From positions 124,001 through 188,000 of the IMG/VR virus record IMGVR_UViG_3300046516_001816: a stretch of 64,000 nt of DNA; one strand, written 5' to 3'. A model generated the notes under the pieces. It had not been told where the DNA came from, searched no databases, and saw nothing but the letters and a program-made list of their open reading frames with translations. Below, piece by piece: positions 24,627-62,991 of the stretch (the first letter of the stretch is position 1; each line of letters starts with the position of its first letter). Made by a program: the position numbers and the translations under genes. The DNA comes from a virus.

Positions 24627-25886
24627 ATGTCGGACGGACTCGCCGCCCTCACCCAGAACTTACAAGCCGACATGCTGTCGGTGGCCGACTCAGCCTCTAA
24701 AGCGGAGACGAGTGCCAAGGACGCTGTGGCCAGCCAGGAGGCCGCGTACGCCGCTGCGCAAAGCGCCAGTACCAGTGCCGCCGGTGTCACCCAAGCGGCT
24801 GCTAGCAGCCTTACCAACGCGAACCAGGCCCAGTATTGGGCGGGCGTCGCTCAAGCCGTCAATGCGATCAAGGCCAGCTTCGATCCGGTGAGCCGCAGTG
24901 TGCTGATTGCCCTCTCTAATGCGAATCTCACAGCCCGATTTCCAGTGGGGCAAGCTGGCATTCTGGGCAATGTCGGACACGGTGCGGGACAGCATTATTT
25001 CGAAGTCACCTTTGTGTCGGGCAGCGCGAGCAGTAACTGTTCGATTGGGGTGGCGCCGAAAAAGCAAGACCTCAACAGTCAGATTGGCTACAACGACAAT
25101 AGCTCGGGCTCGATTGCAGCCTTCCAGAATTCCGGCAACATTTATAGCAGCGCCTCTAAGCTAGCGACCACGGATAGTTTCGGCACGGCCGGTGCGGTGG
25201 TGGGTGTCGCGGTGGATTCGGATAAGAACCTGGTCTGGATTCGCGTGAATAACGGACACTGGAATGGCAATCCGAGTGCGGATCCGGTCGAAGGGGTGGT
25301 GGGTTTGCCGATTCGCTTTACGGGCGCTGTGTACCCGGCGATGGCCACCGACGTGGTCTCGACGTATACCGCGAACTTCAACGGTCCGTTTGCCAACACC
25401 ATTCCTACGGGCTACAACGCCTGGGGGGCGGACGCGTTTCAGTATGTCGTACCGCTCGCGACCAAAGACACGCCGGGGGTGGCGTCCTTTGGTGAAGGCC
25501 TGGCGGTCGATGCGCAAGGTAATGTGACGGCCAGTGTCTATTACGATCTGGCCACCACGCAAGGCTGGGACACGATGACACTCGATCTCAGCACCCCGCA
25601 GCCGCTCTATCACCTGGTGCTGAATGCGACACAAGCGTCGTTGGCCTTTGCGAATCTGAATCTGCCCGCGGGTAAGGCGCTGCGCTTTACGCTCTACGTC
25701 GAACAGGGCACGGGGGCGAATACGATCACCCAGTGGGACAGCCGGATTCAGTGGTGCACGGGCTCGGGTCAGGCTCCGGTGCTGGCGTTTGCCAAGGGCG
25801 CACGCAATGTGTTTGAATTTGAAACCATCGACGGCGTAAGCTTCGCGGGCTACTACGTCGGTCAACTGAACGCGAGCGGTGCGTAA
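24627..25886 (+). CDS. Tail fibre with SPRY-like receptor domain
   Basis: 419 residues, ATG with AAGG upstream. Residues 1-85 form an Ala/Ser-rich coiled shaft (SASKAETSAKDAVASQ). Residues about 95-250 match the SPRY/B30.2 pattern: QHYFEVTFVSG, SIGVAPKK, GYNDNSSGSIAAF, GAVVGVAVDSDKNLVWIRVN, NNGHWNGNP and AVYPAMA. The C-terminal 150 residues are another beta-rich domain (VASFGEGLAVDAQGNV, LRFTLYVEQGTGANTI, FEFETIDGVSFAGYYV), a familiar fibre-tip element. It is probably a receptor-binding fibre at the tail. A short gap separates it from the glycosidase-like gene, so they share a transcript. Confidence 0.75.
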   Translation: MSDGLAALTQNLQADMLSVADSASKAETSAKDAVASQEAAYAAAQSASTSAAGVTQAAASSLTNANQAQYWAGVAQAVNAIKASFDPVSRSVLIALSNANLTARFPVGQAGILGNVGHGAGQHYFEVTFVSGSASSNCSIGVAPKKQDLNSQIGYNDNSSGSIAAFQNSGNIYSSASKLATTDSFGTAGAVVGVAVDSDKNLVWIRVNNGHWNGNPSADPVEGVVGLPIRFTGAVYPAMATDVVSTYTANFNGPFANTIPTGYNAWGADAFQYVVPLATKDTPGVASFGEGLAVDAQGNVTASVYYDLATTQGWDTMTLDLSTPQPLYHLVLNATQASLAFANLNLPAGKALRFTLYVEQGTGANTITQWDSRIQWCTGSGQAPVLAFAKGARNVFEFETIDGVSFAGYYVGQLNASGA

Positions 25887-25895
25887 GGAGTCAGT

Positions 25896-28640
25896 ATGTT
25901 ATCGAGTCTTCGCGTAGGACATAGTAGCGAACAACAAAACGCGCTCTCGATCATCCACGGGTTTAATAACTTTCTCGAACGCAAGACCGGGGACGTGGAT
26001 GACAATGGCGACAACGTGGTAGGGGCATTTGTCATCAATAACGAAGGCATGCTCTGCAACAACTTGCACTTCGAAGGCGGTCCGCAAGACTATACGCCCA
26101 CGCAGTGCTCGACCACCGAAGGGCAGTCGCTGTTGATCCTGGGTTACTACTATCTGTGGAAGGGCACGGGCAATCCGGTGTGGCTGCAAAAAGCCGAGCA
26201 GTACTTTGACTGTTATGTGAGGTACTTCTATGGCACCGCGCCCGTTCCCAACCCGCCCGCGATCTATCGCGCCAACTGGATTATGAACGGCAAGAATCCG
26301 TTTATGGTCTATGGTCCGCCCAATCCGCTCAGCGCGCAAAGCCCCGGCTTCTATGGCGAGCCGATTCAGTTCACCAATGGCGTGGGGGTGATTCCGGCCG
26401 GTGGGACGACCTTTGGCGACAAGCTGGTGAAGGTGTATCAGATCTTTACTGGGAAGTTTGCCTACGACTCCGTGCGTGCCGGTCCGGCCCATGGGGGCAC
26501 GTCCTATACGTTCCAGTCGTTTATGGCGACCAACGGAGCGTGGGATAAGAAGTACAACAGCACGACGATGTCAGCGAACACGGCGGTTGGGACCATCATC
26601 CTGGATGACACGTCCTTCACCGGTACGCTGTCGGTGAGTTACGTCATCGAGTCCGCCAATATCATCGGGCGCAACCAGCCGTTTGACGTCTGGCCGACCT
26701 GGCGTACCCTCCAACCCGACGAGTTGGGTAACGCCATTGATGCCGAGCAGTGGTTCACCGAAGCCGCGTTGTTGCTGTATAAGGCAACGGGCAATCCGCT
26801 GTATAACCAGATCTATCAGTGCGGGCTGCTGACCTGTCTGGATGCGACGGTGGTGGATGACGTGACGTATTACTTCCAGAAAGAAGCGACGTCGGTGGAT
26901 CCGTGTGACTACGGTATCTCCTACTGGTGGAACTATACGCCGACCAATAGCATCGCAACCATCAGTCGGAATGCGGACGGCTATATCGTTGCCACCAAGA
27001 CAGCGGAGACGGGGGATCACCTCGGGACCTTTGCGCTGGAACAGATTGCGGTGTTCAACCAGATTGGCCCGAACACGTCCATCAACAATACGTTCTCGAT
27101 TGATAGCCCGACAGCCCGGATTGACTTCTACACGTATATCCAGTCGGCCGTCGATGCGCCCACTGGGGTGAAGTATCGCTACTCGTTGCCGCAAGGGAAC
27201 TGGAGCCAGATGCAGACGGTGAACGTACCCTTTAACAAGATGATTGCCACGACTAAAGCGGATGGGTCGGAGCTCATTATGTTGGATGGGGCGAACTTTG
27301 CGACCTGGGGCACGGCGACCGCTGTGAGTACCTACGAGACGTTTACGCTTAATGGTCAGGTCTACTCGGACTATGTCTGTACGGCCACGTGTCCGGATAA
27401 TAACTCGGGACTCGCCGCTGGGTTCTGGTTGTTGCAGACCACGACCCAGTCGATTGCCCCGCTCACCTACAAGTCCATCTCCGGCACGATGTATGTGGTG
27501 TTGAAAGACGCGCTGGGCGTGAACTACTGGTATGCGTTGCCGCACGCCGATGACTGGACTACGATCAATCTGACCTGGGATATGTTTACGCTGGTGCCCT
27601 ATCAGAGCGGTACGCCTTCGCCGACGCCGACCCCGCAAGCGGCGATGACGCAGATTGAGTTCGAGACCAATAACAGTGCGGCGACCATCCAGACGTATTG
27701 TTGGGGCGCTGTTCCCACGGTCTATCATCCGAATGGCGAGTGGTCCACGCAGTGGTTCTTGCATGCAAGCGACAGTTCAGCGTTCACTTGGTTGGTCGGG
27801 GATGTGGTGATTCAGAATCAGGCGAATCAACCGTTTAAGTATACGCCGGGCGTGGTGCCGTTTTCCAATCAGTATTCGCCGTCCTTGCGTCGTAATGAGT
27901 TCTGGCGCGGCACGCCCTATTCGGGGTATCAGTATCCGGTGAACTGGCTGTATGCGACGCTGCCCGACTATTACGAGAACGTGATTCAGTTCTACTGGGA
28001 CTGTCAGCAGGCGTATCGCAACGAGATCGGGGTGTTGGGTCCGTTCATGCCGGCTTACGTCTGGCCACGGTATGACAACCTAGGGGAAGGACCGATTGAA
28101 AGCTTTGCGTTTGGCTCCGATCAACCCCAACCCTGGGCGGGCTATGAGCCACGCGGTTTCTTCTCCGCGTGTCATTTGTGGGCCGAGCTGGTGCGCCAGC
28201 ATAAGCCCGTCAATCCGAAGCTCGTCCAAGTCTGTCAGAACTACGCCGGGTATCTGTTGCAATTCCAGAAGACACACAACGGGTTGACGCCGTCGGTGTT
28301 TCCCCGGACTGCACCGCCGTATAACGACGGTTGGGATGCCGACCCCGAGCAAAGCAATCCGGACCACGTCGGACATATGACAGGGCTCTGGTTGGCAGGC
28401 TGTGTGGAGATGTTGAATGCGGGGGACAAGAGCGGCATTCCGCAGAAGGTCATCAAGTACTTGCTGCAAGAGCTCGAGAATACCTACGTGATTCGCAGTG
28501 ACGCCGAGTCGGACATGAATGGCTCGTTTTCACCTTGGGCAGGCGGCCGGATGTTCTACGGCTTCTGGGCAGGGGAGATCTTCCGGGGGTTGGGACTGTA
28601 CCTCGAATGGCTGAACAAAGGCAACAGTATTAACGCTTAA
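25896..28640 (+). CDS. Large glycosidase-like tail protein (six-hairpin type)
   Basis: 914 residues, ATG with AAGGAG upstream. The N-terminal 130 and C-terminal 250 residues consist of amphipathic helix pairs rich in Trp/Tyr (SLLILGYYYLWKGTG, EQYFDCYVRYFYG; later GFFSACHLWAELVRQHKP and MTGLWLAGCVEML). This is the pattern of (alpha/alpha)6 glycosidases. The middle (about residues 350-620) is a beta-rich insertion resembling carbohydrate-binding sandwiches (TARIDFYTYIQ, MTQIEFETNN). Acidic candidates are present, but no catalytic pair can be fixed by eye. It likely degrades or binds capsule, LPS or exopolysaccharide during adsorption. Confidence 0.6.
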   Translation: MLSSLRVGHSSEQQNALSIIHGFNNFLERKTGDVDDNGDNVVGAFVINNEGMLCNNLHFEGGPQDYTPTQCSTTEGQSLLILGYYYLWKGTGNPVWLQKAEQYFDCYVRYFYGTAPVPNPPAIYRANWIMNGKNPFMVYGPPNPLSAQSPGFYGEPIQFTNGVGVIPAGGTTFGDKLVKVYQIFTGKFAYDSVRAGPAHGGTSYTFQSFMATNGAWDKKYNSTTMSANTAVGTIILDDTSFTGTLSVSYVIESANIIGRNQPFDVWPTWRTLQPDELGNAIDAEQWFTEAALLLYKATGNPLYNQIYQCGLLTCLDATVVDDVTYYFQKEATSVDPCDYGISYWWNYTPTNSIATISRNADGYIVATKTAETGDHLGTFALEQIAVFNQIGPNTSINNTFSIDSPTARIDFYTYIQSAVDAPTGVKYRYSLPQGNWSQMQTVNVPFNKMIATTKADGSELIMLDGANFATWGTATAVSTYETFTLNGQVYSDYVCTATCPDNNSGLAAGFWLLQTTTQSIAPLTYKSISGTMYVVLKDALGVNYWYALPHADDWTTINLTWDMFTLVPYQSGTPSPTPTPQAAMTQIEFETNNSAATIQTYCWGAVPTVYHPNGEWSTQWFLHASDSSAFTWLVGDVVIQNQANQPFKYTPGVVPFSNQYSPSLRRNEFWRGTPYSGYQYPVNWLYATLPDYYENVIQFYWDCQQAYRNEIGVLGPFMPAYVWPRYDNLGEGPIESFAFGSDQPQPWAGYEPRGFFSACHLWAELVRQHKPVNPKLVQVCQNYAGYLLQFQKTHNGLTPSVFPRTAPPYNDGWDADPEQSNPDHVGHMTGLWLAGCVEMLNAGDKSGIPQKVIKYLLQELENTYVIRSDAESDMNGSFSPWAGGRMFYGFWAGEIFRGLGLYLEWLNKGNSINA

Positions 28641-28647
28641 ACATACG

Positions 28648-28676: not shown

Positions 28677-28692
28677 TCTAATATTTTTTGGC

Positions 28693-28704
28693 CATTTTAT
28701 GCAT
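28693..28704 (+). promoter_or_regulatory. Candidate late promoter (CATTTTATGCAT)
   Basis: A TTTTATG heptamer lies 31 bases before the fibre start at 28732 and 22 bases after the ATGCCG trailer, in an A/T-rich gap. Confidence 0.35.
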
Positions 28705-28731
28705 GTCTCAACCACCATAAAAGGGCTCACT

Positions 28732-30348
28732 ATGTCAGACGGTACTACTCCTGGCTCGGATGGGATCAGCGCAGCCGCCACCGCGTTGGCTCAAGAAATG
28801 TCGAATTCCTTGTCGGAGTTCATCGATGGCGTGGTAGCCAACGTCAATCAAGACACGATCGCCAATGCGCAAGCCAGTGCGGCCGCGGCCGCTGCGTCCG
28901 CGACGGCTGCTGCCTCATCCGCCTCTCAGGCTTCTCAAGCGTCGACGACGTCGGCGGCTAACTCCGGTTCCTCGGGTCAAAGCGCGACCTGGGCATCCCA
29001 ATCCGCGACGGCTGCGGCGGCTGCCGCGGCTGAATCCCTGGCTGCCCAACAAGCGGCCAATCAAAGCTACGCCAACACGCAAGCGGCACTCGCTGCCTTT
29101 CAAGCGACGGCCACCGCGTTGACGGGTTTCATGACCACGTACAAGACGTACTTCCTGGGGGCGGGCGCGGCTGACCCCACGCAAGACGGCAATGGCAACT
29201 CGCTGCGCGAAGGGGCCATGTACGAGAACACAACGAGCCACAAAATCCGGGTCTACTCGGGCACCCAGTGGAACGATATCGACTACACGATCCAGGCTCA
29301 ACTCGCTGCCGCTACGGCGTCCGCTACGGCGGCTGCGAGCTCCGCCACTGCCGCCGCGGGTTCCGCGACGGCCGCCGGTGCTTCGGCGACGTTGTCCCAG
29401 AACTGGGCCTCGCAAGCCTCGGGCGTAGTGAACGGTACGAGCTCGCTCTCGGCTAAGCAATACGCCGGTAATGCGGCGACCTCGGCGACCAACGCGGCAT
29501 CGTCCGCGACCGCAGCGGCTGCTTCCGCGACGGCCGCGGCAGGCTCGGCCACGCAAGCGCAAACGTCGGCTGCCACCGCGACCTCCCAAGCCACCTCGGC
29601 GTCGGGTTCGGCTACCGCTGCTTCGGGTTCCGCTACAGCGGCATCCACGTCGGCGGGTAACGCATCCACGTCGGCCACGGCGGCTAGTACTTCGGCAACC
29701 AACGCAGCCAATAGTGCCACGGCCGCCGCGGGTTCGGCGACGGCGGCTGCGACGTCGGCTACAAATGCGTCGAACAGTGCAGCGAGCATCGGCGCGTTCG
29801 GTGTGCTCTCAGGCATCGTGTCAGTGACCAACAACAAGAACCTGACGAGTGCGGACTACGGGAAGATGTACGAGATCCCGTCGGGCTCGGCAGGCGGCTA
29901 CTCGATTGCCGCGCCTGCGGTGGTCGCAGGCGACACCGGTAAATGCTTCGGGATCTGCAACCGCTCCACGGGTGCGGTCACAGTCACGACGGGGGCGAAG
30001 TTCTTCAGCTCCTACGGCTCGAACGTAGCAACGGTGACGATCCCGCCGAATTCGACGGTGATCTTCCAGCAAGACGGTACGAACTTCAACGGCATTGCAG
30101 GCTCGGGGGCCATCGGTAGCACCCTGGTGCCGACCAACGCAGCCCAACCGGGTCAATGGGAGGCGCTCGCGCCGACGGGTCCGGCAGGGGGTGCGACGTT
30201 TGTGTTGCCGGGGGACGCTACGCAACAATGGGCCTACTTCGTGGCCAATGGTTCGCAGCAAGCCGCAGGCGTGGGTGCGGGTGGTTCGGGCGTGTTGGGT
30301 CCGTTCACGTCCAGCAATCCGGTGGGGTTCTGCTGGCGCATCGGTTAA
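28732..30348 (+). CDS. Alanine-heptad tail fibre
   Basis: 538 residues. ATG 28732 with AGGG upstream was chosen over ATG 28699, which lies in the promoter-like stretch. The shaft to about residue 355 is Ala/Ser/Thr heptads (SATAAAG-like). It is interrupted by one globular module with FLGAGAADPTQD, GAMYENTTSHKIRVY and a Trp, and by one module QNWASQASGVVNG...YAGNA. The C-terminal 180 residues are beta-rich, with ADYGKMYEIPSG and VTVTTGAKFFSSYGS, a small receptor-type tip. Probably a trimeric fibre with a thin coiled shaft. No S74 chaperone is attached. Confidence 0.8.
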   Translation: MSDGTTPGSDGISAAATALAQEMSNSLSEFIDGVVANVNQDTIANAQASAAAAAASATAAASSASQASQASTTSAANSGSSGQSATWASQSATAAAAAAAESLAAQQAANQSYANTQAALAAFQATATALTGFMTTYKTYFLGAGAADPTQDGNGNSLREGAMYENTTSHKIRVYSGTQWNDIDYTIQAQLAAATASATAAASSATAAAGSATAAGASATLSQNWASQASGVVNGTSSLSAKQYAGNAATSATNAASSATAAAASATAAAGSATQAQTSAATATSQATSASGSATAASGSATAASTSAGNASTSATAASTSATNAANSATAAAGSATAAATSATNASNSAASIGAFGVLSGIVSVTNNKNLTSADYGKMYEIPSGSAGGYSIAAPAVVAGDTGKCFGICNRSTGAVTVTTGAKFFSSYGSNVATVTIPPNSTVIFQQDGTNFNGIAGSGAIGSTLVPTNAAQPGQWEALAPTGPAGGATFVLPGDATQQWAYFVANGSQQAAGVGAGGSGVLGPFTSSNPVGFCWRIG

Positions 30349-30411: not shown

Positions 30412-31431
30412 ATGGCGGACGGAACGAATCCCGATACCGTACTTACGACCGCGGATTTCTTAGCGGATGTGGCGGCGGTGGCACGACAGTCAGGCTGGGC
30501 AGACCAGTGTGCGACGTCAGCCGCAGCGTCGGCGGCGCAAGCTGAGCTGATTCTCGAACAGATTCTGGGATTGGTGGGCAGTGGTGAGAACTCGGGTCTT
30601 TTGGCCCAGATTCAAGAGGTGGCAAATTCGGCCAGTCAGGCGGCCGCGTCAGCGAGCGCTGCGGCAGCCAGTGCTGCGGCGGCGGCCGCCAGTGTAACCA
30701 GTGCAGCTGCTAAGGTGGGCGATGCCAGCACTCAGGCGAGTAATGCGTCGACGTCTGCAAATGCTGCCGCGGCTTCAGCAACAGCAGCAGCCAACAGTGC
30801 GACTCAAGCAGCAGCGTCCGCCACCGCGGCCAGTGCAGCTTCAGGGTCGGCTACCAGTGCGTCGAACTTTGCGACTGCTGCACAAGCGTCGGCTACAGCA
30901 GCGAACAATTCTGCGACCGCAGCGGCGTCGAGTGCTGCGCAAGCGCAAACCAGCGCCACAGCAGCCCAGACACAAGCTTCGGCTTCTCAGACCAGCGCCA
31001 CGGCCTCCGCAGGCTCCGCGTCGGCGGCCGCGGCTTCGGCGAGTCAGGCCTCGACGGCTGCGGCATCTATTGCGGGTGTCGGACTGAAGTATTTGATCAC
31101 GGCGACCTTGACGGGTACGCTGTCCGCCTCGGAAATCATTCCGTGTCCCGTGACAGTGGCGATTACCTTACCGACGAATCTGTCGGGCTCGCAATTCACG
31201 GCGATCAATAGTGCCACCGCAGCGGTGATTCTGACGCTCTTCCATAACTCGGGGGGCACGTCAACCCCGATTGGGACGGTGACGTTTGCTGCTGGGGCGA
31301 CCAACGGTACCGTGACCTTCACGAATCCCGTGGTCTTTGCCGCCGGCGACTTGCTGGTGATCACGACCCCGAGCACGGCCGATTCGACTTTGGCAAATAT
31401 TGCCATTGGGATTGTCGGCTCGGTGAACTAA
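30412..31431 (+). CDS. Alanine-rich tail fibre with short beta tip
   Basis: 339 residues. Residues 1-65 are an anchor-like helical start. Residues about 70-215 are Ala/Ser heptads without the WAS or WLG modules. The last 120 residues are a beta domain (YLITATLTGTLSASEIIP, TVAITLPTNLSGSQF, VTFAAGATNGTVTF). The start lies 23 bases after a terminator. It overlaps no gene and is followed at 11 bases by the LamG-like protein, suggesting joint expression and perhaps assembly. Confidence 0.8.
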   Translation: MADGTNPDTVLTTADFLADVAAVARQSGWADQCATSAAASAAQAELILEQILGLVGSGENSGLLAQIQEVANSASQAAASASAAAASAAAAAASVTSAAAKVGDASTQASNASTSANAAAASATAAANSATQAAASATAASAASGSATSASNFATAAQASATAANNSATAAASSAAQAQTSATAAQTQASASQTSATASAGSASAAAASASQASTAAASIAGVGLKYLITATLTGTLSASEIIPCPVTVAITLPTNLSGSQFTAINSATAAVILTLFHNSGGTSTPIGTVTFAAGATNGTVTFTNPVVFAAGDLLVITTPSTADSTLANIAIGIVGSVN

Positions 31432-31441: not shown

Positions 31442-32542
31442 ATGGCTTTGTTGTTTTGTGACGGGTTTGATATTTACACCAAAGTCTCGGAGCTCACGGG
31501 TAAGGGCTGGCAGGGCGCGGCGGGCAGCCAGACACTCAATGCGAGTATTGCCCTGTCTGCTTCAGGCAGTCCCTACGGTGGACAATGCATTATCATCGGT
31601 CCCACCGCGAACGGGGTATCGATGTATAAACCCGGGGTGTTTACCTATGCCAATGGCTATACCTTGAACTGTGCGTATATGTACAAGCACACGGGTGGAT
31701 TCCCGAGTCAAAATGAGGGCTCGACGAACGTGGGGGGTTTGCTGCTGCTCGGCTACGATCAGCCCATCGCTGGGCAGTCCGATAGTCGCACGCTGCTCAG
31801 TGTGAATACCACAGGCAAGTTGACCTTTATGCCTTTCGGCGGCAATACGCTGAATGCGACCACGGGCAATATCAATCTTTGCGATGGCGTGTATCACTGG
31901 ATTGAAATGCAGGTGGTACTCACTACTGCGGCGACAGGTTCGGTTAAAGTGTATGTAGATGGGGTATTGGATTTAAACCTCACGAATCTTATCACCGTCA
32001 GCTCCGGCACACCGCAGGGTGAAGTAGGCTTTGGTAGCACGTCCAATAACGGAGCGTTTAGCGTCACGGATTATTACGATGATGTGGTGATGTGGGACAA
32101 TACCGGCACAACGTTCAATACCTTTCCCATTGGTCCGCAACGCATCTATACAGCCACACCCAATGCCGCTGGTGCGCTGTCGCAGTTTACCCCGAGCGCA
32201 GGGGCGAACTACGCGGTGGCTGCGCAGGCGTATTCGGGCGCGGCGTATTTGACAGCCACGGCTGCTGGGCAATCCGATCTGTATGCGACGACCGGACTCG
32301 GGGGCGCGACACCCTCGCAGATTAACGCGGTGGCGGTGAACACCTATGCCAATAATCCGGCAGCGGGATTTCGTAAGCTTCAGAATCTACTGCAATCGAA
32401 GGGCGTCACGGTCTCCGGTCCTTCTTATCAGCTCACTGCCAGCAGTGTGGGCTATCAGACGATTTTTCACACCGATAGCAGCGGCGCGGCGTGGACCACC
32501 ACCACGGTGGCGGGCATGCAGGTGGGCGTGGGAGCAGTGTAA
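31442..32542 (+). CDS. LamG/concanavalin-A-like tail protein
   Basis: 366 residues, ATG with AAGGAG upstream. The start MALLFCDGFDIY is typical of phage jelly-roll proteins. The first 230 residues form a LamG-like sandwich: FMPFGGNTLN, DGVYHWIEMQVVLT, GSVKVYVDGVLDLNL and a final YYDDVVMWDN. The C-terminal 130 residues are a Tyr/Ala-rich beta domain (NYAVAAQAYSGAAYL, NAVAVNTYANNPA). The N-terminal phrase resembles the starts of the three large proteins at 55510, 57810 and 60081. Glycan binding at the tail is the likely role. Confidence 0.75.
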   Translation: MALLFCDGFDIYTKVSELTGKGWQGAAGSQTLNASIALSASGSPYGGQCIIIGPTANGVSMYKPGVFTYANGYTLNCAYMYKHTGGFPSQNEGSTNVGGLLLLGYDQPIAGQSDSRTLLSVNTTGKLTFMPFGGNTLNATTGNINLCDGVYHWIEMQVVLTTAATGSVKVYVDGVLDLNLTNLITVSSGTPQGEVGFGSTSNNGAFSVTDYYDDVVMWDNTGTTFNTFPIGPQRIYTATPNAAGALSQFTPSAGANYAVAAQAYSGAAYLTATAAGQSDLYATTGLGGATPSQINAVAVNTYANNPAAGFRKLQNLLQSKGVTVSGPSYQLTASSVGYQTIFHTDSSGAAWTTTTVAGMQVGVGAV

Positions 32543-32778
32543 TGGCGACGGATTCCGTAGTCGTGGTGAAGAACTATGCGGAGCTTATTACCGGGGCCTC
32601 GTATAGCTACAGTGCCCATATTCTGAAGTCCTACGCGGATGTGGTTACCCAGCGTGCGCAGTTCCCTTATCAGGCTGCGGTGAGCAAACTCTATGTGGAA
32701 ATTGTCGCGAGTGTTGCACTCACCGTCGGTCCGCCTAAACGACGGATCGTCAAGACGCAGTTGATTCGTGCGCGGTAA
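32542..32778 (+). CDS. Small hypothetical protein of the fibre region
   Basis: 78 residues, ATG 32542 in a TAATG overlap with the LamG-like gene. It is built of two or three similar short units: VVVVKNYAELITGASYSY, HILKSYADVVTQRAQFPY and AVSKLYVEIVASVALTV. These give a repeating beta-strand pattern (VxKxYxExV). It may be a small structural partner of the preceding protein. Family not recognised. Confidence 0.65.
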   Translation: MATDSVVVVKNYAELITGASYSYSAHILKSYADVVTQRAQFPYQAAVSKLYVEIVASVALTVGPPKRRIVKTQLIRAR

Positions 32779-33718: not shown

Positions 33719-34471
33719 ATGACCGTCGATATTCAAGCACTCGCGCTCGCGCAGCGCACCACGTATTACTTCATGGCTGAGGGTGGCGTCGGGATCACCC
33801 CGGACGGCACCGTGCCCGAAGGCGCCGTGCCCTGTACCCAGGCGCAGTATCAGAATCCCAATCAGTACTTCATCGACTACTCCACTACGCCACCGTCGAT
33901 TAAGAGTGTTGACGTCGCGACCTCGTTGCAGCTCGCCCAATCCAAGCAGATCATGGCGCTCGCTGCGTCCTGTTCGAATGCAATCTATTCGGGCTATCGG
34001 TCCCTGGCGCTCGGCAGTGCCCATCTGTATCCGGCCAAGGCTACTGACCAGATGAACATGCTCTCGTCACTGGTGGCAGGGCTGGGCAGTGTGGTGTTCG
34101 ATGCCGATGACTGGGAACCCAATACGAACTATGTCGAAGGACAAGTCGTCTGGAAGAAAAAGCAACTTTACCAGGTGATGCGTAATGGGCGAAGCGGGGC
34201 ACAAGAGCCCCTGTGGCCACAGAGTCTCACTGCCCCCGCGGTCGATGGCACGGTGCTGTGGGCGTTGTGGTACACGCCCTTCTGGTGTGAAGATCTGTCA
34301 ACGAATCCGGGGAGTTGGGCATTTCGCCCGCACACGTTGCGCCAGATCTGGCAAGTCGGCAAGGATGCCAAAGAGGCTGTGCTGGAGGAGATGGGCATGA
34401 ACACCTTGCTTGTCGCTCAAGTCATGGCGGCGAAAACCGTTGAAGCTGTGGAGGCTGTGAAATGGCCCTGA
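33719..34471 (+). CDS. DUF4376-type tail-fibre assembly protein
   Basis: 250 residues. The middle carries the DUF4376 signature: CSNAIYSGYRSLALGSAHLY followed by PAKATDQMNMLSSL. These proteins are typically found next to phage fibres as assembly or tip proteins. The segment NTNYVEGQVVWKKKQLYQVM with later Trp residues looks like a small carbohydrate-binding module of the CBM5/12 type. Its end overlaps the start of the papain-like gene by ten bases. It probably assists folding of, or caps, the fibre encoded just upstream. Confidence 0.7.
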   Translation: MTVDIQALALAQRTTYYFMAEGGVGITPDGTVPEGAVPCTQAQYQNPNQYFIDYSTTPPSIKSVDVATSLQLAQSKQIMALAASCSNAIYSGYRSLALGSAHLYPAKATDQMNMLSSLVAGLGSVVFDADDWEPNTNYVEGQVVWKKKQLYQVMRNGRSGAQEPLWPQSLTAPAVDGTVLWALWYTPFWCEDLSTNPGSWAFRPHTLRQIWQVGKDAKEAVLEEMGMNTLLVAQVMAAKTVEAVEAVKWP

Positions 34472-34905: not shown

Positions 34906-34910
34906 TTAAG

Positions 34911-34939
34911 GGGTCGCCTTCGGGCGGCCCTTTATGCCG
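34911..34939 (+). terminator. Intrinsic terminator running into TTTATGCCG
   Basis: Eight-base stem GGGTCGCC / GGCGGCCC (one T-G pair) with UUCG loop, then TTTATGCCG. Confidence 0.8.
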
Positions 34940-34953
34940 CGAATTCTATGACC
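34940..34953 (+). promoter_or_regulatory. Candidate late promoter (GAATTCTATGACC)
   Basis: TATG eight bases after the ATGCCG trailer, 26 bases before the fibre start at 34973. ACC follows the core, as in the copy at 24596 (TATGGACC). Confidence 0.4.
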
Positions 34954-34972
34954 TTCCTCTCAGGAGAACAGA

Positions 34973-35512: not shown

Positions 35513-35514
35513 TC

Positions 35515-36195: not shown

Positions 36196-36206
36196 TAGGA
36201 CTCATC

Positions 36207-54379: not shown

Positions 54380-55501
54380 ATGAGCGCCACTCCGCAGTTT
54401 ATCGTCGGTGCTGAAGGTCTGGATCTCTATGCAGCCGGCGTCCTGGGGAATAAGTTCCCTTGGTTCCAGACCAATGCGACCTACCAAGGTCAAGTAGTAG
54501 CAGGCGCGGGCGTGTTCGGCGGCAATGGCCTCTCGTTCGCTGTAGCGGCAGCCAATCAGTCGGGCATGGAGTACCAGTTCCCCTCCACCATGCAGGTGAT
54601 GAAAAATCAGGTGGCAGCAGGGGGCAAAGGTGCATTTGGAGTGTGTGGGTGGGTTAAAATCGGCACCCCGGTGGCAACAGGGACCGATATTCTGTTAGCA
54701 CTGGGGTCGTCGGCTAATCCGGCGGCAGCCTTGCCTTTGCTGGGGCTGAACAACGCCACCGCGAGTGGGTTGAGTTTGGTGCTGCCGTCGACCACGGCCA
54801 ATCTGGTGTCGGCACCGCACTTGCTTGCCATTAACCCGAATAGCGCGTTGTGGGTCGGGGTGTATTTTTCGTACACGCCGAACGCGAATGGGACACTGAC
54901 CGGCACACTGTGTCTGTCGGGCTCAGGCATCTACCAGGATGTGCCGATTACCTTTAGTACCGATATCTTTACCGCGGGGCAGTTGTGTAACCGTCTGCGC
55001 TTTTACTCCGGGGTGGTGGCACCCTGGACGCTGGATGACATGATCATTCATGCGGTCTCGAATGCAGACACGCTCTGGCCCGCGCCGACGACGCTGAACC
55101 CGGAAGTGATTCCGCAGTATCTGCCGCGTCAAATCTCGCTGGCCACTGCCACGGGTCCGGGCAGTAAGGCGGACATGACGCCCTCGGGCAGCGAACCAAA
55201 CTGGCAATCGGCGACCGATCAAACGGGCGCGAATTCCGTGATTGCCACCGCCATTAACCAGACGGACACGTATAAGTGGAGTACGACGGCCACGGATATC
55301 AAAGCCGTGGTCTACCGAGGTCAGAGTGAGAAGTACAGTCAGTTGAGCGCTGTGCAGTTGGTGGGCGCGACCCAGAGCACGATGGGCTTGACCGAAGCGG
55401 GGCCGAATGATTTCATTGGCATTTCCGAAAACGACGGCGCGGCGCAGTGGACGGCGACCTCAGTGGCAGCGGCTGAGTTCGGTCAGACCTCGCATAACTA
55501 A
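54380..55501 (+). CDS. Tail protein with LamG-like sandwich
   Basis: 373 residues, AAAGGAAATGAG upstream. The start PQFIVGAEGLDLYAAGVL resembles the opening of the LamG-like and Asp-box proteins nearby. Residues about 40-225 look like a jelly-roll (GLSFAVAAANQSGMEYQF, GAFGVCGWVKIG, LWVGVYFSYTPN, ITFSTDIFTAGQLCNRL). The rest is a second beta domain with DTYKWSTTATDIKAVVYRG and a C-terminal ATSVAAAEFGQTSH. Its place directly before the three paralogues suggests it belongs to the same sub-assembly. Confidence 0.65.
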   Translation: MSATPQFIVGAEGLDLYAAGVLGNKFPWFQTNATYQGQVVAGAGVFGGNGLSFAVAAANQSGMEYQFPSTMQVMKNQVAAGGKGAFGVCGWVKIGTPVATGTDILLALGSSANPAAALPLLGLNNATASGLSLVLPSTTANLVSAPHLLAINPNSALWVGVYFSYTPNANGTLTGTLCLSGSGIYQDVPITFSTDIFTAGQLCNRLRFYSGVVAPWTLDDMIIHAVSNADTLWPAPTTLNPEVIPQYLPRQISLATATGPGSKADMTPSGSEPNWQSATDQTGANSVIATAINQTDTYKWSTTATDIKAVVYRGQSEKYSQLSAVQLVGATQSTMGLTEAGPNDFIGISENDGAAQWTATSVAAAEFGQTSHN

Positions 55502-55509
55502 GGATTATC

Positions 55510-57795
55510 ATGACCGCTTTATTGATGGAAGGGTTTGAGAGCGTCATTGACACGCCGGACCTGACGAACCGCGGATGGAAGATGTCCAGCATGGCGTCGT
55601 CGAATGGCGCCAATACCATGACCTTGCCTTCGCGCACGGGCATGCCGGGTAGAGGATTGTTTTTGCGGGGCCCGTACAACTCTAATACGACCAACCTGCC
55701 GTTTGCCAATGCGGTGGATTTCGGGATGCTCGATACCGGTGCGTCCATTTATAGTCTCTGGCAGTCAGGCGGATTTTGTTTGGGCGTGAATGCCGTGTTT
55801 AACAAGGCGAACATGGTCCAGATCGCGAACTACATGACGCGTCAGATCGTGTACGATGGAGCGCAGTACTACTGGGCCCTGGGTCAGGACAATAGCAATG
55901 TGTGGCGGGTGTACTACTCCACGGACTTGCAGAACTGGACACAGACAACCATCACGCCCGGCAGCGCTGCCTTGGGTTCATCGATTACGGTGATCGGCAG
56001 CGGACCGAGCGCCACCGTGATTGTCGGAGGGTTTCTCATCAGCACCACGGCTGCGTTTTACTACTCGACCAATATGGGACTGGCCTGGACGGCGAGTAAC
56101 GCCACCGGGATCTCGGGCTCCAAGACAGTGATCGCCACGGGCAACGTCAACACTCCCATTATGTTCGGGGCCCAGCCCAGTAGTGGCGCGAACGGCGTTT
56201 TCTATCTGAGCAGTGTGTCAGGCGCGCCGGTGCAGGTGGCAGGCTTGGCGCTCACGGCCTCGAGCACGTATAACTCGGGTAACTCCAAGTTGGTGAATGG
56301 GATAGCGTGCTTTATCGCCTCCTCGGGTACAACGTCCCCGGCCGCCTTGACGACTAATGCGTCTATCGTGGCATGCTGTCCGGTGTCCAAAGACATGACG
56401 ATAGCGGCCAACTATACGTTGACGCCTTCGCTGGCGCATCAGTTGGCCGATATCACGTTCCTCAATAACACGTGGATCGCTGTAGGGCATGGCGGGATTT
56501 ATACGTCCCCCAATAGTGGTACGGTGGGTGCGCCGGCGGGCCCGACTGCTGCGTGGTCGACGGCACTGGCGGTGACACAAAACGGCGGCGTGTATTCGAT
56601 CGATACGAACGGTACGGTGGCCGTGGCCGTGGGTAATGATAACGTGAGCTCGGTAATTCCGGCCATCTATACGTCGACCGATGGCGTGAGTTGGGCGAAA
56701 CAGAATCGTCTTACCTTCACCACCGCCAACAACGTCGCGAACACGCAGCCGTTTACCAACGTCTTCTGGGACGGTCATCAGTTTGTGCTGACGGGTGGTG
56801 TGAGTAATAGCGTGGTGGCGACTTCACCGGATGGTTTTCAGTGGACGCCGCAGTACGTGCCCGACTACACGGAGTCGTCGGGGGGGTCCGTGGCCTCGAT
56901 GCTGGGTGTGTATTCCGGTGTGATGAACGCCGGCGCGTGGGTCGGTGCAAGTCAGGCCGCGGGCGGTTTTGCTCCGTGGACGACGGGGGCGGCCGCCCAA
57001 TGTGGGGTGGGACTGTTAGCCGGTCCAGTCAGTAATGGCGCCCGCAACGTGAGTGCCTGGTTGGTACCTGGCGGGACGACGACGAGCGCGATCGTAGCCA
57101 TTTCCTCGATGAGTGCCGCGGTACCGACCAACCCGTTGTCGCACTACTACGAGCTGATTGCCACGGCCACCGCGAGTGTGAACACCTTTACGTTCCAGCT
57201 CGCCATTGATGGCGTCGTGCAACCGGCACTCAGTCCGCCCGTTCAGTTTGCGGCCACGGGCGACACCACCGGTGCGTCGCATCTGATTTTCAACCTTCCG
57301 CGCTCAGGCAACTGGGTGATGGTGGATGACCTTTATTTGACGAACTTCTCAGGCTCAAATAACGTGGGTCAACTGGGTGTCACCAGTGTGTTGCCGTGGG
57401 TGCCCTCCAGTGATGTACAGGCGCAGTATAACCGAACGGCGGGATCGTCTAACGCCTCGCAAGTCGTGGGTCCGCTCTCCAATGCTCAGACGAGCGTTAA
57501 TGCTCAAGCGGTGGGGGCGAAGGATATCTACGGCATGACCACTAGCGTGCCAGTCGGCTATCGCGTGCGCGCCATGCAGGCAGAAGCCTACTTTTCGAAG
57601 TTTGGTGCCACGGGGGCAGCCGCAACGGTCGGCATTGTCAGTAACGGCGCGGAAAGCGATTCGGCGCAAGCGAACGCGGCGACTAGCACGCCCGTGTATG
57701 CCTCGGTCCTGTGCGACACCGATCCGAAGACGGGTGCTGCCTGGACGGTAGCGGCTGCACAGGCGGCGGAGATTGCGATCGTCAAAGCAACTTAA
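55510..57795 (+). CDS. Asp-box beta-propeller tail protein, copy 1
   Basis: 761 residues. The N-terminal 100 residues (ALLMEGFESVIDTPDLTNRG, GRGLFLRGPYNS, IYSLWQSGGFCLG) form a jelly-roll-like domain. Residues about 115-450 hold sialidase-type Asp-box blades: YYSTDLQNWTQ (about 136), YYSTNMGLAWT (185), YTSTDGVSWA (387), TSPDGFQWT (438). The C-terminal 220 residues are beta-rich (HYYELIATATASVNTFTFQL, NWVMVDDLYLTNF). The catalytic Arg/Tyr/Glu set of true sialidases is not evident, so binding rather than cleavage is likely. Paralogues follow at 57810 and 60081. Confidence 0.7.
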   Translation: MTALLMEGFESVIDTPDLTNRGWKMSSMASSNGANTMTLPSRTGMPGRGLFLRGPYNSNTTNLPFANAVDFGMLDTGASIYSLWQSGGFCLGVNAVFNKANMVQIANYMTRQIVYDGAQYYWALGQDNSNVWRVYYSTDLQNWTQTTITPGSAALGSSITVIGSGPSATVIVGGFLISTTAAFYYSTNMGLAWTASNATGISGSKTVIATGNVNTPIMFGAQPSSGANGVFYLSSVSGAPVQVAGLALTASSTYNSGNSKLVNGIACFIASSGTTSPAALTTNASIVACCPVSKDMTIAANYTLTPSLAHQLADITFLNNTWIAVGHGGIYTSPNSGTVGAPAGPTAAWSTALAVTQNGGVYSIDTNGTVAVAVGNDNVSSVIPAIYTSTDGVSWAKQNRLTFTTANNVANTQPFTNVFWDGHQFVLTGGVSNSVVATSPDGFQWTPQYVPDYTESSGGSVASMLGVYSGVMNAGAWVGASQAAGGFAPWTTGAAAQCGVGLLAGPVSNGARNVSAWLVPGGTTTSAIVAISSMSAAVPTNPLSHYYELIATATASVNTFTFQLAIDGVVQPALSPPVQFAATGDTTGASHLIFNLPRSGNWVMVDDLYLTNFSGSNNVGQLGVTSVLPWVPSSDVQAQYNRTAGSSNASQVVGPLSNAQTSVNAQAVGAKDIYGMTTSVPVGYRVRAMQAEAYFSKFGATGAAATVGIVSNGAESDSAQANAATSTPVYASVLCDTDPKTGAAWTVAAAQAAEIAIVKAT

Positions 57796-57809: not shown

Positions 57810-60071
57810 ATGACCTGTGTGTTAACAGAAGGATTTGAGTCCGTCCTCGATGATACGGATGTGGTGCGTCGCGGCTGGGTGCGCCCGAGCGCTGTCACCT
57901 TGAGTGGAGCTGGGACACTGGGGATGCCTGCACGGACGGGACAACCAGGTCGTGGTCTACTCTTGCGCGGACCGTATTATAGTGCCGGTGGCTTACCTAA
58001 TGCCACTAGCGCGATAGCGGACTTCGGGATGCTCAATACGGGCAAGAGTATCTACAGCCTCTGGCAGGCCGGTGGGTTTGTAGCGGGTTTTAGTGCAGCA
58101 TTCAATAGCTATCCGCACACGACTCAGCTGCAAGTAGCCGCACCCGATACCCAGCAGATCGTCTATGACGGCGCCCAGTATTACTGGGCCATTGGGCAGA
58201 TCTATTCGAGTTCGACCAACGTCGTGATGTATTCGACCGATCTGGTGAACTGGACCCCGTGTGGGGCCCAGCCGACCCTGCTTCAGAACGCAGTGATCCA
58301 AGTGATCGGTAGCGGACCCAACGCCACGATCATTCTCGGTAATAAGAGCGGCGTGTCGCCGATGGTGCCTTCCTACAGCACCAATATGGGATCGAGTTGG
58401 AGCACGATGGCTATCGGTGCCTCGGATAATATCAAGAAGATTCTGCCGGCTGCCGGCCCGTCTTCCGCGCCGTATATTGCCGTTGGCTACTATCCGGGTA
58501 ACGGATTTCGATTGTGGAGTTATGCGTCGCTTTCGGCTACCCCGACTTTGATCACAGGAGCGAACGTGACGGGGACCGTGACGTATGGTACCGCATGGGC
58601 ACGGGTGAGTAATGGCTTCTATGTGGTCTGCGGGATGTCGATGGCAGCGTCCGGCACTGCGCCAGCGGCGGGGTCCTCGTTCGTGTGGTATTGCCCGACC
58701 AGTGTGGACCCAACGGTCGGCAGTAACTGGGTAGCGCTGACAAGCGCCAGCACGAACTATTTCAATGACGGTATCTACTTCAACAATCGTTTTGTGATGG
58801 TGGGGTATAACGGCATCTATTGGAATGGGGCGGCGAGCAATAACACCTGGATCAATGCGCTCACAACAGGTACTGCTTCGGTGTACTCGATTGCCTCCAA
58901 TGGTTCCATGCTGGTCGCAGTCGGCCAGGATCCGGTGAACACCACGTTGCCGGCGATTTGGACCTCCCCAGACGGGATGACCTGGACCAAGCAGAACAAG
59001 CTGATTCTGTCCAACGCCGGAGGCAATGGCAACAATACGATGTTTTCGAATATCTATTGGGATGGGGCGCGCTGGGTGTTGACCGGCGGCGTGAATTGCA
59101 ATGTGATCGCCACCTCGACGGACGCCGTTACCTGGACGCCGCTCTATTACCCGGATTATCCGGAAACGGGCGTTACGGCGGGCTCCATGCTGGGTGTGTT
59201 TTCAGGAACCCTCAACGCCGCTAACAATATATTTACGCCGTGGTCAGCGACCACAGGAGTGGTGGGGCTCGGGGTAAACGCGACCCCGGTCTCCAGTCTG
59301 AATCGGGCGCTCAATGGTGCGACCGTGACCGGGGCAAACACGATTAGCAATATTGCGCCGGCGACGACGGTCTTTACGACCAATGTGGTCGGCCCGCAAC
59401 CCGTGGGTCAGCTCACGCACTACTACGAGCTCATTGCGACGGCGACGGCTTCTCAGAATACTTTCACCGTTCAGTGGGCGCTTGATGGGGTGATCCAACC
59501 GGGCGTGATTGGGACGATTCTCTTTGCCGGCGCAGCCGACACCGGCTCAGCGCAGCTCTGTCTGAATCTGCCGCGCAGCGGGGCGTTTGTCATGATTGAT
59601 GACATTTATGTCAACACCATGAATGGCTCGAGCAATGTCGGGCAGCTCGGACCGGTCAGTGTGTTCCCTTGGACGCCAACGTCGGACACGCAGGCGCAGA
59701 TGACCGCGTCGCTTGCGGGCTCCCACGCTGCACAAATTGCAGGTCCGCTGTCCACCAACACGGGTTCGCTCTCGACGTATGTGCAAGGCACGAAAGACAT
59801 CTATGCCACGAGAGAGTCCATCCCAGCGGGCTTTACGATTAAGGCTGTTTCAGCAGAGGCGATCTTCACCAAGAACGGCACGATTGGGGGCGCGGGTAAC
59901 GTCGGGATCACCAGCAACGGGCACGAAGTCGATTCGACCGCGGTGTCCGCGCCGGTGGCCAATACGTATTACTTCGCCTCGGTGCTCTTGGAGACGGATC
60001 CCAACACGGGCCTGGCGTGGACCAAGACAGCGCTGGATCTCGCGGGTATTACCGTGAGCAAAACGAATTAA
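57810..60071 (+). CDS. Asp-box beta-propeller tail protein, copy 2
   Basis: 753 residues. Same architecture as 55510: EGFESVLDDTDVVRRGW start, GRGLLLRGPYYS, SIYSLWQAGGFVAGF, then YDGAQYYWAIGQ. Blade motifs are YSTDLVNWTP, STNMGSSWST, TSPDGMTWTK and TSTDAVTWTP. The end is HYYELIATATASQNTFTV and FVMIDDIYVNTMNG. It is close to copy 1 along the whole length but differs most in the blades, which are probably the contact surface. The GSDxxAxSxA linker segments are also conserved. Virion tail location is inferred. Confidence 0.7.
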   Translation: MTCVLTEGFESVLDDTDVVRRGWVRPSAVTLSGAGTLGMPARTGQPGRGLLLRGPYYSAGGLPNATSAIADFGMLNTGKSIYSLWQAGGFVAGFSAAFNSYPHTTQLQVAAPDTQQIVYDGAQYYWAIGQIYSSSTNVVMYSTDLVNWTPCGAQPTLLQNAVIQVIGSGPNATIILGNKSGVSPMVPSYSTNMGSSWSTMAIGASDNIKKILPAAGPSSAPYIAVGYYPGNGFRLWSYASLSATPTLITGANVTGTVTYGTAWARVSNGFYVVCGMSMAASGTAPAAGSSFVWYCPTSVDPTVGSNWVALTSASTNYFNDGIYFNNRFVMVGYNGIYWNGAASNNTWINALTTGTASVYSIASNGSMLVAVGQDPVNTTLPAIWTSPDGMTWTKQNKLILSNAGGNGNNTMFSNIYWDGARWVLTGGVNCNVIATSTDAVTWTPLYYPDYPETGVTAGSMLGVFSGTLNAANNIFTPWSATTGVVGLGVNATPVSSLNRALNGATVTGANTISNIAPATTVFTTNVVGPQPVGQLTHYYELIATATASQNTFTVQWALDGVIQPGVIGTILFAGAADTGSAQLCLNLPRSGAFVMIDDIYVNTMNGSSNVGQLGPVSVFPWTPTSDTQAQMTASLAGSHAAQIAGPLSTNTGSLSTYVQGTKDIYATRESIPAGFTIKAVSAEAIFTKNGTIGGAGNVGITSNGHEVDSTAVSAPVANTYYFASVLLETDPNTGLAWTKTALDLAGITVSKTN

Positions 60072-60080
60072 GGAAGCGTC

Positions 60081-62366: not shown

Positions 62367-62376
62367 GGAGGCGGGT

Positions 62377-62991
62377 ATGACCACAGGTGTATACGCCCAA
62401 GGGGTCAATGGCCAGTATCTTGCCCAGCAGATCACCTCCGTGCGCATTGGCGGGGTGAATGGACAAGTGCTGGCGCAGTTTTCCCCGAAGTCGGTAAAGA
62501 CGCGTGCGACTAACGGTCAGATGTTGGTGTCAGCCCCCAGTGCCATTAATGTCCAGGCAGTCAATGGTCAGGTACTGGCGTATCGGTCAGGCGTGAAAGC
62601 ATCAGGCGCCGGCATACAGGTGATGACCAAAGCCAAAGGTGCGGTGATTTCACAAGGCGTCGGCGTCCAGGTACTGCTGAAGCAGCCGGGGGGTGTGGAA
62701 GTCATTCGTGCTAACATGCAGGTGTTGGTGCGTTCACGCTCTGCAATGCAAGCCCAGGCTGTGGGCGGGCAGATGCTGGTGAGTAAGCTGCTGGATGTGC
62801 GTACGACCCAAGTCATGATGGAAGTGATTGGGGAAGTGCCGCCATACTTACCGGTCACTGGGGTGAACCTGGAAGTCATCGGGGCAGGGTTCCCGGCGGC
62901 TCCCCTGAAGCAAGTGACGCTCGAAGTGATTGGCGCCACGACCCTTCCGTACCAGAGCCCTGGACAGACGGTCACGTGGTGGAGCAGCTAA
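62377..62991 (+). CDS. 17-residue-repeat protein of the fibre region
   Basis: 204 residues, AAGGAGG upstream. Residues about 4-140 are eight units of roughly 17 residues with the core VNGQVLA/NGQMLV, for example GVNGQYLAQ, GVNGQVLAQ, ATNGQMLVS, AVNGQVLAY and AVGGQMLVS. The later part has three looser units ending LEVIGA. Strand-turn alternation suggests a solenoid or elongated beta structure. It follows the propeller triplet without a gap and may connect or cap them. No family recognised. Confidence 0.7.
   Translation: MTTGVYAQGVNGQYLAQQITSVRIGGVNGQVLAQFSPKSVKTRATNGQMLVSAPSAINVQAVNGQVLAYRSGVKASGAGIQVMTKAKGAVISQGVGVQVLLKQPGGVEVIRANMQVLVRSRSAMQAQAVGGQMLVSKLLDVRTTQVMMEVIGEVPPYLPVTGVNLEVIGAGFPAAPLKQVTLEVIGATTLPYQSPGQTVTWWSS

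What the first reader, a model, noticed from the sequence alone, without database searches (positions are those of the whole stretch)
24627..62991. A 38 kb adsorption region with about 20 fibre-type genes built from interchangeable parts
At least nine alanine-shaft fibres carry different tips (SPRY, FAM3-like, two related sandwiches, fibre-knob domains, S74 spikes). Alongside are jelly-roll proteins, three propellers, a chaperone, a papain-like protein and a 914-residue glycosidase-like protein. This is a far larger share of sequence than ordinary receptor-binding loci. It suggests a branched, multi-receptor tail or a set of whisker fibres giving very broad or switchable host range.
Basis: partly seen in the sequence, partly recalled or inferred. 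Interest (0 to 1): 0.85.

Follow-up and report, generated by a model that had tools for sequence, protein, structure and literature searches.

The report
Jumbo-phage fibres with clipped-on lectins
This stretch of a giant phage genome encodes about ten host-binding fibres, and its sugar-binding and propeller proteins turn out to be heads of two of them, probably held on by small 'strand-repeat' adaptor proteins that recur in many unrelated phages and have not, as far as I could find, been described.

Summary
Window 24627-62991 carries 23 intact same-strand genes (98% coding, 13.5% of a 285-kb phiKZ-like record whose nearest known relative is Burkholderia phage FLC9). Ten encode alanine-rich fibres (eight have clear heptad shafts) with different tips; SPRY, ILEI/FAM3 and S74 domains were confirmed.

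The reading needs changing. The jelly-roll and 'propeller' proteins are not independent fibres. All five belong to one lectin family (the propellers by an insertion of about 320 residues) and sit in two cassettes: fibre ending in a 'T' domain - lectin(s) - small protein of tandem 12-residue strand repeats (30412/31442/32542 and 48296/54380/55510/57810/60081/62377). Repeat proteins of this kind sit beside the same lectins in unrelated phages (Sarumanvirus, Mesorhizobium, Caulobacter; by eye Chi-like and other siphophages), and in some they are fused to tail-tip proteins. ORFs with three or more repeats: 10 of 89 next to lectins, 0 of 6,326 elsewhere. Single-lectin loci have 2-4 repeats (mean 3.2).

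A lectin-adaptor co-fold docks one repeat confidently. I infer a strand-donating adaptor that clips lectins, perhaps as trimers, to fibre tips. Broad receptor range is plausible. Switching is unsupported: I found no reverse transcriptase, recombinase or long inverted repeat.

The parts
24627..25886 (+). Short Ala-stretch fibre with SPRY domain and a tail-fibre C-terminal domain (419 aa)
   Evidence: Pfam SPRY 2.3e-8; phrog_9017 tail fibre 7e-14
25896..28640 (+). 914-aa phage tail protein of family phrog_2871, function unknown
   Evidence: phrog_2871 4e-219; tblastn in 532 phage records; no Pfam family or PDB chain
28699..30348 (+). Ala-shaft fibre (549 aa, about 282 aa shaft)
   Evidence: lag-7 autocorrelation 0.35
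30412..31431 (+). Cassette A fibre: short Ala shaft (about 196 aa) ending in the T domain
   Evidence: T-domain HMM 4e-30; leave-window-out 69 bits; phrog_7049 tail fibre
31442..32542 (+). Cassette A lectin (LamG/concanavalin-like sandwich plus C-terminal domain)
   Evidence: lectin HMM 1e-89 (it was a seed); 35% identical to BcepSaruman_270
32542..32778 (+). Cassette A strand-repeat adaptor, 78 aa, 3 repeats; its ATG overlaps the lectin stop codon
   Evidence: homologous to an unannotated ORF directly after BcepSaruman_270; 3 motif hits versus at most 1 in shuffles; with the window's own repeats left out of the matrix only 1 of 3 scores
32982..33716 (+). Short Ala-stretch fibre with sandwich-like tip (244 aa)
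   Evidence: sequence inspection; no family hit
33719..34471 (+). Tail-fibre accessory/assembly-like protein (250 aa)
   Evidence: phrog_1348 tail fibre 1e-19; similar to FLC9 gp218
34462..34905 (+). Small putative permuted-papain-like protein (147 aa)
   Evidence: phrog_1128 and phrog_22304; no Pfam hit; papain-like assignment is by eye only
34973..35512 (+). Ala-shaft subunit (179 aa), partner of 35515
   Evidence: last 21 aa 71% identical to FLC9 gp228, also next to its ILEI gene
35515..36195 (+). Separate ILEI/FAM3-type tip (226 aa)
   Evidence: Pfam ILEI 2e-8; FLC9 gp227 38%, FLC6/FLC8 42%
36207..36971 (+). Ala-shaft fibre with sandwich tip (254 aa)
   Evidence: tip 47% identical to FLC9 gp220
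36981..37715 (+). Ala-shaft fibre with the same type of tip (244 aa)
   Evidence: tip 41% identical to FLC9 gp220
37725..38891 (+). Ala-shaft fibre with 223-aa C-terminal domain (388 aa)
   Evidence: lag-7 autocorrelation 0.51; phrog_38058 tail fibre
38986..45579 (+). 2197-aa fibre: about 922 aa Ala shaft plus C-terminal S74 chaperone domain
   Evidence: Pfam S74 6e-11
45632..47053 (+). S74 spike/fibre protein (473 aa)
   Evidence: Pfam S74 8e-10
47053..48207 (+). S74 spike/fibre protein (384 aa)
   Evidence: Pfam S74 1e-11
48296..54367 (+). Cassette B fibre: 2023 aa, about 1512 aa Ala shaft (about 220 nm if one straight coiled coil, inferred), C-terminal T domain
   Evidence: leave-window-out T HMM 33 bits, C-terminus searched alone
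54380..55501 (+). Cassette B lectin (373 aa)
   Evidence: 43% identical to BcepSaruman_279 over its length; lectin HMM
55510..57795 (+). Propeller-lectin 1: lectin sandwich with a propeller-like insertion
   Evidence: lectin HMM on residues 488-759; phrog_30887; BcepSaruman_278 33%
57810..60071 (+). Propeller-lectin 2
   Evidence: lectin HMM on residues 1-102 and 425-748, so the lectin is split by about 320 residues
60081..62366 (+). Propeller-lectin 3
   Evidence: lectin HMM split 1-174 / 502-758
62377..62991 (+). Cassette B strand-repeat adaptor, 204 aa, 11 repeats (8 NGQVLA-type, 3 LEVIG-type)
   Evidence: 11 motif hits versus mean 1.2, max 4 in shuffles; 8 with window repeats left out of the matrix; homologous to BcepSaruman_277 with 6 repeats

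Best explanation
This is the host-recognition locus of a phiKZ-like jumbo phage. It encodes about ten fibres, most with alanine coiled-coil shafts, each with its own tip (shown). Two fibres carry non-covalent lectin heads (inferred). In each cassette the shaft protein ends in a conserved T domain; next come one or more lectins of one family (three with a propeller-like insertion); last comes a small protein of tandem 12-residue strand repeats. Order and homology are shown. I infer that the repeat protein is a polyvalent adaptor: each repeat adds a beta-strand to one lectin chain, about three repeats serve one lectin gene (perhaps one trimer), and the adaptor holds the lectins at the fibre tip or tail tip. 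The 2023-aa fibre would then present four kinds of lectin head on one long arm. The rest of the locus (33719 to 36971) resembles a smaller FLC9 locus; the cassettes share homologues with Sarumanvirus and were probably acquired by exchange.
For: Cassettes A and B have the same gene order as in BcepSaruman, whose terminase and baseplate wedge queries found no match in this record. The lectin family reaches at least 173 phage records. The T domain lies directly before the first lectin in Mesorhizobium phage Cp1R7A-A1, Chi-like phages, Brevundimonas phage Fanboy and several IMG/VR lineages, and in Caulobacter Ccr10 in the order T-adaptor-lectin. ORFs of 45-250 aa with three or more repeats: 10 of 89 adjacent to lectins, 0 of 2,997 non-adjacent, 0 of 3,329 in stretches without lectins. 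Repeat number rises with lectin number: Spearman 0.85, or 0.82 without the window and Saruman; 14 single-lectin loci have 2-4 repeats, mean 3.2. Repeat subtypes track the genes: Saruman's 3 ARQVL + 3 EVLA accompany one propeller-lectin + one lectin; the window's 8 NGQVL + 3 EVIG accompany three propeller-lectins + one lectin. In some phages the repeats are part of a larger protein that by its sequence looks like a tail hub or distal-tail protein (Tetraselmis S20, Polewnik, L052, L061, L062). AlphaFold2 of a lectin joined to its 3-repeat adaptor (L036): pLDDT 81, pTM 0.81; repeat 3 (388-399) is a strand at about 83 while repeats 1 and 2 lie near or below 50. Sphingomonas phage Kharn carries a repeat-like strand in cis right after its lectin domain.
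Against: No virion proteomics or solved structure. The co-fold is one chain joined artificially through a stop codon, from a relative, with no contact map and no shuffled control; the same test on window proteins was too poor to read (pLDDT 49). The ratio is not exact: 2-4 repeats per lectin in small adaptors, 5 for 2 and 11 for 4, about 14 for 2 in Polewnik and roughly 30 for 4-5 in Chi-like phages. Several counts were made by eye; the matrix missed L061 and L063 and found only part of L052, L053, L062, Kikimora and Polewnik. With the window's repeats left out of the matrix only one of three repeats of 32542 scores. Some lectins have no repeat ORF beside them (HRDY3, QdP_Psa3, L035, L037). 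No lectin trimer was modelled. The tail-hub identities of the fusion partners are recalled; Pfam gave no supporting hit for L052 or L062.
Confidence: 0.6

Rival explanations
1. One reading: about 20 independent fibre or whisker genes with freely interchangeable tips giving very broad or switchable host range.
For: Many tips, Ala shafts of very different length, the T domain on both a 339-aa and a 2023-aa shaft.
Against: Conserved T-lectin-adaptor order in unrelated phages makes the lectins parts of shared assemblies. No reverse transcriptase, resolvase or integrase family in the record and no long inverted repeats in the region.
Confidence: 0.2
2. The repeat proteins are self-contained beta-solenoid or triple-strand spikes, themselves receptor-binding tips, and not adaptors.
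For: Repeats of about 17-20 residues with alternating hydrophobics could stack; Chi-like versions reach about 700 aa.
Against: Two to four repeats are too few for a solenoid; repeat number and subtype follow the lectins; fusions place repeats beside other tail proteins; in the co-fold a single repeat gains confidence beside the lectin.
Confidence: 0.15
3. The repeat proteins are assembly chaperones for the lectins and are absent from the virion.
For: Small size and position directly after the lectins, as for fibre chaperones; the cassette A start codon overlaps the lectin stop codon.
Against: Fusion to proteins that look like structural tail components in several phages; a cis strand in Kharn.
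Confidence: 0.15

Closest known systems
Hyperbranched fibre systems of jumbo phages phiKp24 and RaK2 (PMC9700779, PMC10253068)
   Same: Many receptor-binding proteins from one locus on one virion; non-covalent branching
   Different: There branching is proposed through T4 gp10-like N-terminal docking domains and the tips are capsule depolymerases; here no depolymerase family was found, shafts are Ala coiled coils, and strand-repeat adaptors are proposed
BcepSaruman/BcepSauron (Sarumanvirus) fibre locus
   Same: Homologous T-fibre, lectin, propeller-lectin and repeat protein in the same order, twice
   Different: One propeller-lectin and 6 repeats instead of three and 11; no long Ala-shaft fibres seen; the small cassette A adaptor is not annotated there; core genes did not match this phage
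Chi-like siphophages (SPN19, Enc34)
   Same: DUF2793 fibre with T domain, then four or more lectins, then a repeat protein
   Different: One giant 660-709 aa protein with roughly 30 longer repeats; no solved chain resembles the SPN19 lectin or repeat protein
RcGTA DUF2793 tail fibre (PMC10883770)
   Same: DUF2793 fibres that carry the T domain in Chi-like and Mesorhizobium phages belong to the same Pfam family; the RcGTA fibre is reported to be part of the particle
   Different: The window fibres have Ala shafts instead of DUF2793
Burkholderia glumae phage FLC9 (phiKZ-like)
   Same: 46% identical core structural protein; shares the split shaft/ILEI pair, the 36207-type tip, the 33719 homologue and the YadA-like protein
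   Different: No lectin cassette or long Ala-shaft fibre found; smaller locus

Membership tests
phiKZ-like jumbo phage | Core virion proteins homologous to the phiKZ group | tested here: met
   phrog_3184, 3430, 3248, 3196, 3181, 3004, 3222 matches; 270 phage records share the 877-aa protein, FLC9 best at 46%
phiKZ-like jumbo phage | Nuclear shell protein and multisubunit virion RNA polymerase | not tested
   not searched
Phage lectin family (this report) | Full-length match to the lectin profile including the C-terminal domain | tested here: met
   31442 and 54380 full length; 55510, 57810, 60081 with insertion; window sequences were among the seeds
T-fibre / lectin / strand-repeat cassette (this report) | T domain directly before lectins and repeat ORF directly after | tested here: met
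   both window cassettes
T-fibre / lectin / strand-repeat cassette (this report) | Repeat protein physically binds the lectin in the virion | not testable with these tools
   only a co-fold of a relative
RcGTA/Chi DUF2793 tail fibre | DUF2793 domain (PF10983) | tested here: not met
   present in the SPN19 and Mesorhizobium proteins, absent from 30412; only the C-terminal T domain is shared
phiKp24/RaK2 branched fibres | T4 gp10-like docking domains and depolymerase beta-helices | tested here: inconclusive
   no such Pfam hit among the shorter proteins; the two giant shafts were not scanned whole
Diversity-generating retroelement or invertible fibre system | Reverse transcriptase or site-specific recombinase; inverted repeats | tested here: not met
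   PF00078, PF00239, PF00589 absent from the record while controls rang; no long inverted repeats in the region

The most novel reading that the evidence does not exclude
Many tailed phages share an undescribed receptor-display principle: short strand-repeat adaptor proteins, stand-alone or fused to tail-tip proteins, donate one beta-strand per lectin chain, so that about three repeats hold one lectin (perhaps a trimer) and the repeat count and subtypes encode how many kinds of lectin the tip carries.
Probability: 0.45. Interest if true: 0.78.

Novelty: new variant of a known kind. Interest (0 to 1): 0.6.

Why it matters
It would explain how one phage can display several non-covalent receptor-binding heads on one arm, and would give function to lectins and repeat proteins that are mostly annotated as hypothetical in well-studied phages (Chi-like, Caulobacter Ccr, Enc34). 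The repeat count makes a direct stoichiometric prediction that can be tested. It also shows host-recognition cassettes shared between phages with unrelated core genes.

Tried and rejected
Near-identity DNA search of 22001-46000 in phages: no match. The BcepSaruman terminase and baseplate wedge are not detectable in the record, so this is not a Sarumanvirus. Reverse transcriptase, resolvase and integrase searches negative. PF03906 and PF21789 searches were uninformative. An exact 3:1 repeat rule was considered and rejected: small adaptors range from 2 to 4 per lectin. The second AlphaFold2 job (window propeller-lectin 3 plus adaptor, frames joined by reading TAAG as one residue) gave pLDDT 49 and was set aside. 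Foldseek against PDB gave only low-TM matches, mainly lectin-like and carbohydrate-binding domains of glycosidases, sialidases and clostridial toxins; I read this as shared sandwich fold only. Papers: no description of the lectin/strand-repeat system found in this library, which lacks most subscription journals, including the Chi cryo-EM paper, which I know only as cited in PMC12724387 and from memory.

Full report
Context. The window is bases 124001-188000 of a 284,983-bp IMG/VR record. Genes elsewhere in the record match phiKZ-group virion families, and the 877-aa structural protein is 46% identical to that of Burkholderia glumae phage FLC9. It is therefore a phiKZ-like jumbo phage, probably of a betaproteobacterial host (inferred). 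In the parts of the window outside the region no structural module was recognised; the region is an island between non-structural genes.

Observation. 24627-62991 holds 23 intact + strand genes at 98% coding, 13.5% of the record. Ten proteins have Ala-rich stretches; eight have long shafts in which alanine recurs every 7 residues, as expected for an alanine coiled coil. The two giants have about 922 and 1512 shaft residues; at 0.148 nm per residue the second would be about 220 nm if straight (inference). SPRY, ILEI/FAM3 and three S74 domains are above Pfam cut-offs.

What the jelly-rolls and propellers are. A profile from phage lectins matches all five: 31442 and 54380 in full, and 57810 and 60081 in two parts separated by about 320 residues, i.e. 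a lectin with an inserted domain (window sequences were among the seeds). Whether the insert is a propeller was not settled by folding.

Two cassettes. BcepSaruman, a jumbo phage whose terminase and baseplate wedge have no match here, has the same sets in the same order: Sar_271 (T) - Sar_270 (lectin) - an unannotated 72-aa ORF, and Sar_280 (T) - Sar_279 (lectin) - Sar_278 (propeller-lectin) - Sar_277 (repeats). In the window these are 30412-31442-32542 and 48296-54380-55510/57810/60081-62377. The T domain is the last 110 or so residues of the fibre; a profile built without window sequences finds it in 30412 (69 bits) and, searched alone, in the C-terminus of 48296 (33 bits).

The repeat proteins. 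Both are tandem copies of a 12-residue hydrophobic-alternating motif (consensus about V-R-x-S-Q-x-x-V-E-V-L-x). Counts: window A 3, Saruman A 3, Saruman B 6 (3+3), window B 11 (8+3). The three EVI-type repeats go with the lectin shared by both phages; the other type goes from 3 to 8 as propeller-lectins go from 1 to 3.

Survey. Lectin relatives occur in at least 173 phage records. Repeats were found beside the lectin in Mesorhizobium phage Cp1R7A-A1 (2 lectins:5 repeats), Caulobacter Ccr10 (1:3), Brevundimonas Domovoi (1:3) and, weaker, Kikimora (1:3), Fanboy (2:9), Polewnik (2:14), Tetraselmis S20 (1:4), and IMG/VR loci L036 (1:3), L038 (1:4), L039 (1:2), L040 (1:4), L052 (2:5), L053 (1:4), L061 (1:2), L062 (1:3), L063 (1:4). 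Several of these counts were made by eye, and the motif matrix confirms only part of them. Chi-like phages have 4-5 lectins and one protein of about 700 aa with roughly 30 longer repeats. Five lectin loci showed no repeat ORF (HRDY3, QdP_Psa3, L035, L037, and VPv81, where the record ends). At a fixed threshold, ORFs of 45-250 aa with three or more hits were 10 of 89 next to lectins and 0 of 6,326 elsewhere; Spearman between lectin and repeat number 0.85 overall and 0.82 without the window and Saruman. These loci are not phylogenetically corrected, many repeats were matrix seeds, and L036, L038 and L040 are the clean unseeded cases.

Anchoring. In S20, Polewnik, L052, L061 and L062 the repeats are part of a larger protein whose remainder looks like a tail hub or distal-tail protein. 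These identities rest on recalled sequence resemblance; Pfam gave no supporting hit for L052 or L062. If right, they say the repeats belong to the tail tip.

Co-fold. In L036 the lectin and adaptor are in frame, so reading the intervening TAG as glycine gives one chain (a modelling device, not a claim of read-through). AlphaFold2 gave pLDDT 81.4 and pTM 0.81. Repeat 3 (388-399) is one continuous strand with block pLDDT 83; repeats 1 and 2 are strands near or below 50. Since repeat 3 is the farthest from the lectin along the chain, this favours specific docking of one repeat per lectin chain, but no contact map was available and there was no control. Foldseek confirms a phage lectin family fold. 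Kharn, without a repeat ORF, has a repeat-like strand (VRVTGLTGAALV, score 13.7) at residue 337 directly after the lectin domain.

Mechanism. Shown: gene order, homology, association, co-variation of counts. Inferred: strand donation, about three repeats per lectin trimer, attachment at fibre tips. In this phage the long 48296 fibre would carry four lectin kinds, 30412 one.

Rest of the locus. FLC9 has homologues of 33719 (gp218), 36207/36981 (gp220) and 34973/35515 (gp228/gp227) within 12 kb, a likely older core. The 914-aa protein is a common tail family of unknown function.

Switching and host range. No reverse transcriptase, serine resolvase or tyrosine integrase family in the record, no long inverted repeats. 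Multi-receptor binding is likely by analogy with phiKp24 and RaK2 (PMC9700779, PMC10253068), but untested.

Novelty. Large multi-fibre loci are known. I found no description of the lectin/strand-repeat adaptor system in the open library searched. I file it as a new variant of a known kind (branched receptor-binding apparatus) with a plausible new assembly principle.

Noticed in passing
L002:352-2643 (record 188352-190646, just downstream of the window): 764-aa protein with a signal-peptide-like N-terminus and a C-terminal YadA membrane anchor (PF03895, 7.5e-12): a phage-encoded trimeric-autotransporter-like protein. Among 50,697 phage records only FLC9 gp240 and one bacterial contig matched.
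   Followed up: partly
window 21419-22540: Branched-chain amino-acid type periplasmic binding protein (Peripla_BP_6, 4e-49) with an export signal-like N-terminus, in a phage genome; a lipoprotein-like gene follows at 22548-23129.
   Followed up: partly
L025 5240-7366, L026 5440-7443: Chi-like phages carry a 668-709 aa protein made almost wholly of roughly 30 longer repeats after four lectins; no solved structure relative of the SPN19 protein.
   Followed up: partly
L003 26298-26516 (BcepSaruman 171297-171515, minus): Unannotated 72-aa gene in BcepSaruman, homologous to the cassette A adaptor.
   Followed up: yes
L014:17159-19663 (record 265159-267663, minus): Another fibre-like virion protein (phrog_2163, phrog_8147) far from the main locus.
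   Followed up: no
window 681-3630: Tandem genes 681, 1255, 2167, 3130 look like diverged paralogues (shared N-terminal pattern by eye); function unknown.
   Followed up: no
window 33719-34471, residues about 129-165: Segment WEPNTNYVEGQVVWKKKQLYQVMRNG looks like a small chitin-binding-type module by eye; Pfam gives no hit.
   Followed up: no
L018:35693-36424 (FLC9 gp226): Alpha/beta-hydrolase-like protein (GHSLG motif by eye) next to the FLC9 ILEI tip gene; no counterpart seen in the window.
   Followed up: no
window 34973-36195: Ala shaft and ILEI tip are separate genes here and in FLC9, with the shaft C-terminus conserved (IPHMTISSAAPSGGNSGDLWYQI): a possible heteromeric shaft/tip junction.
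   Followed up: partly
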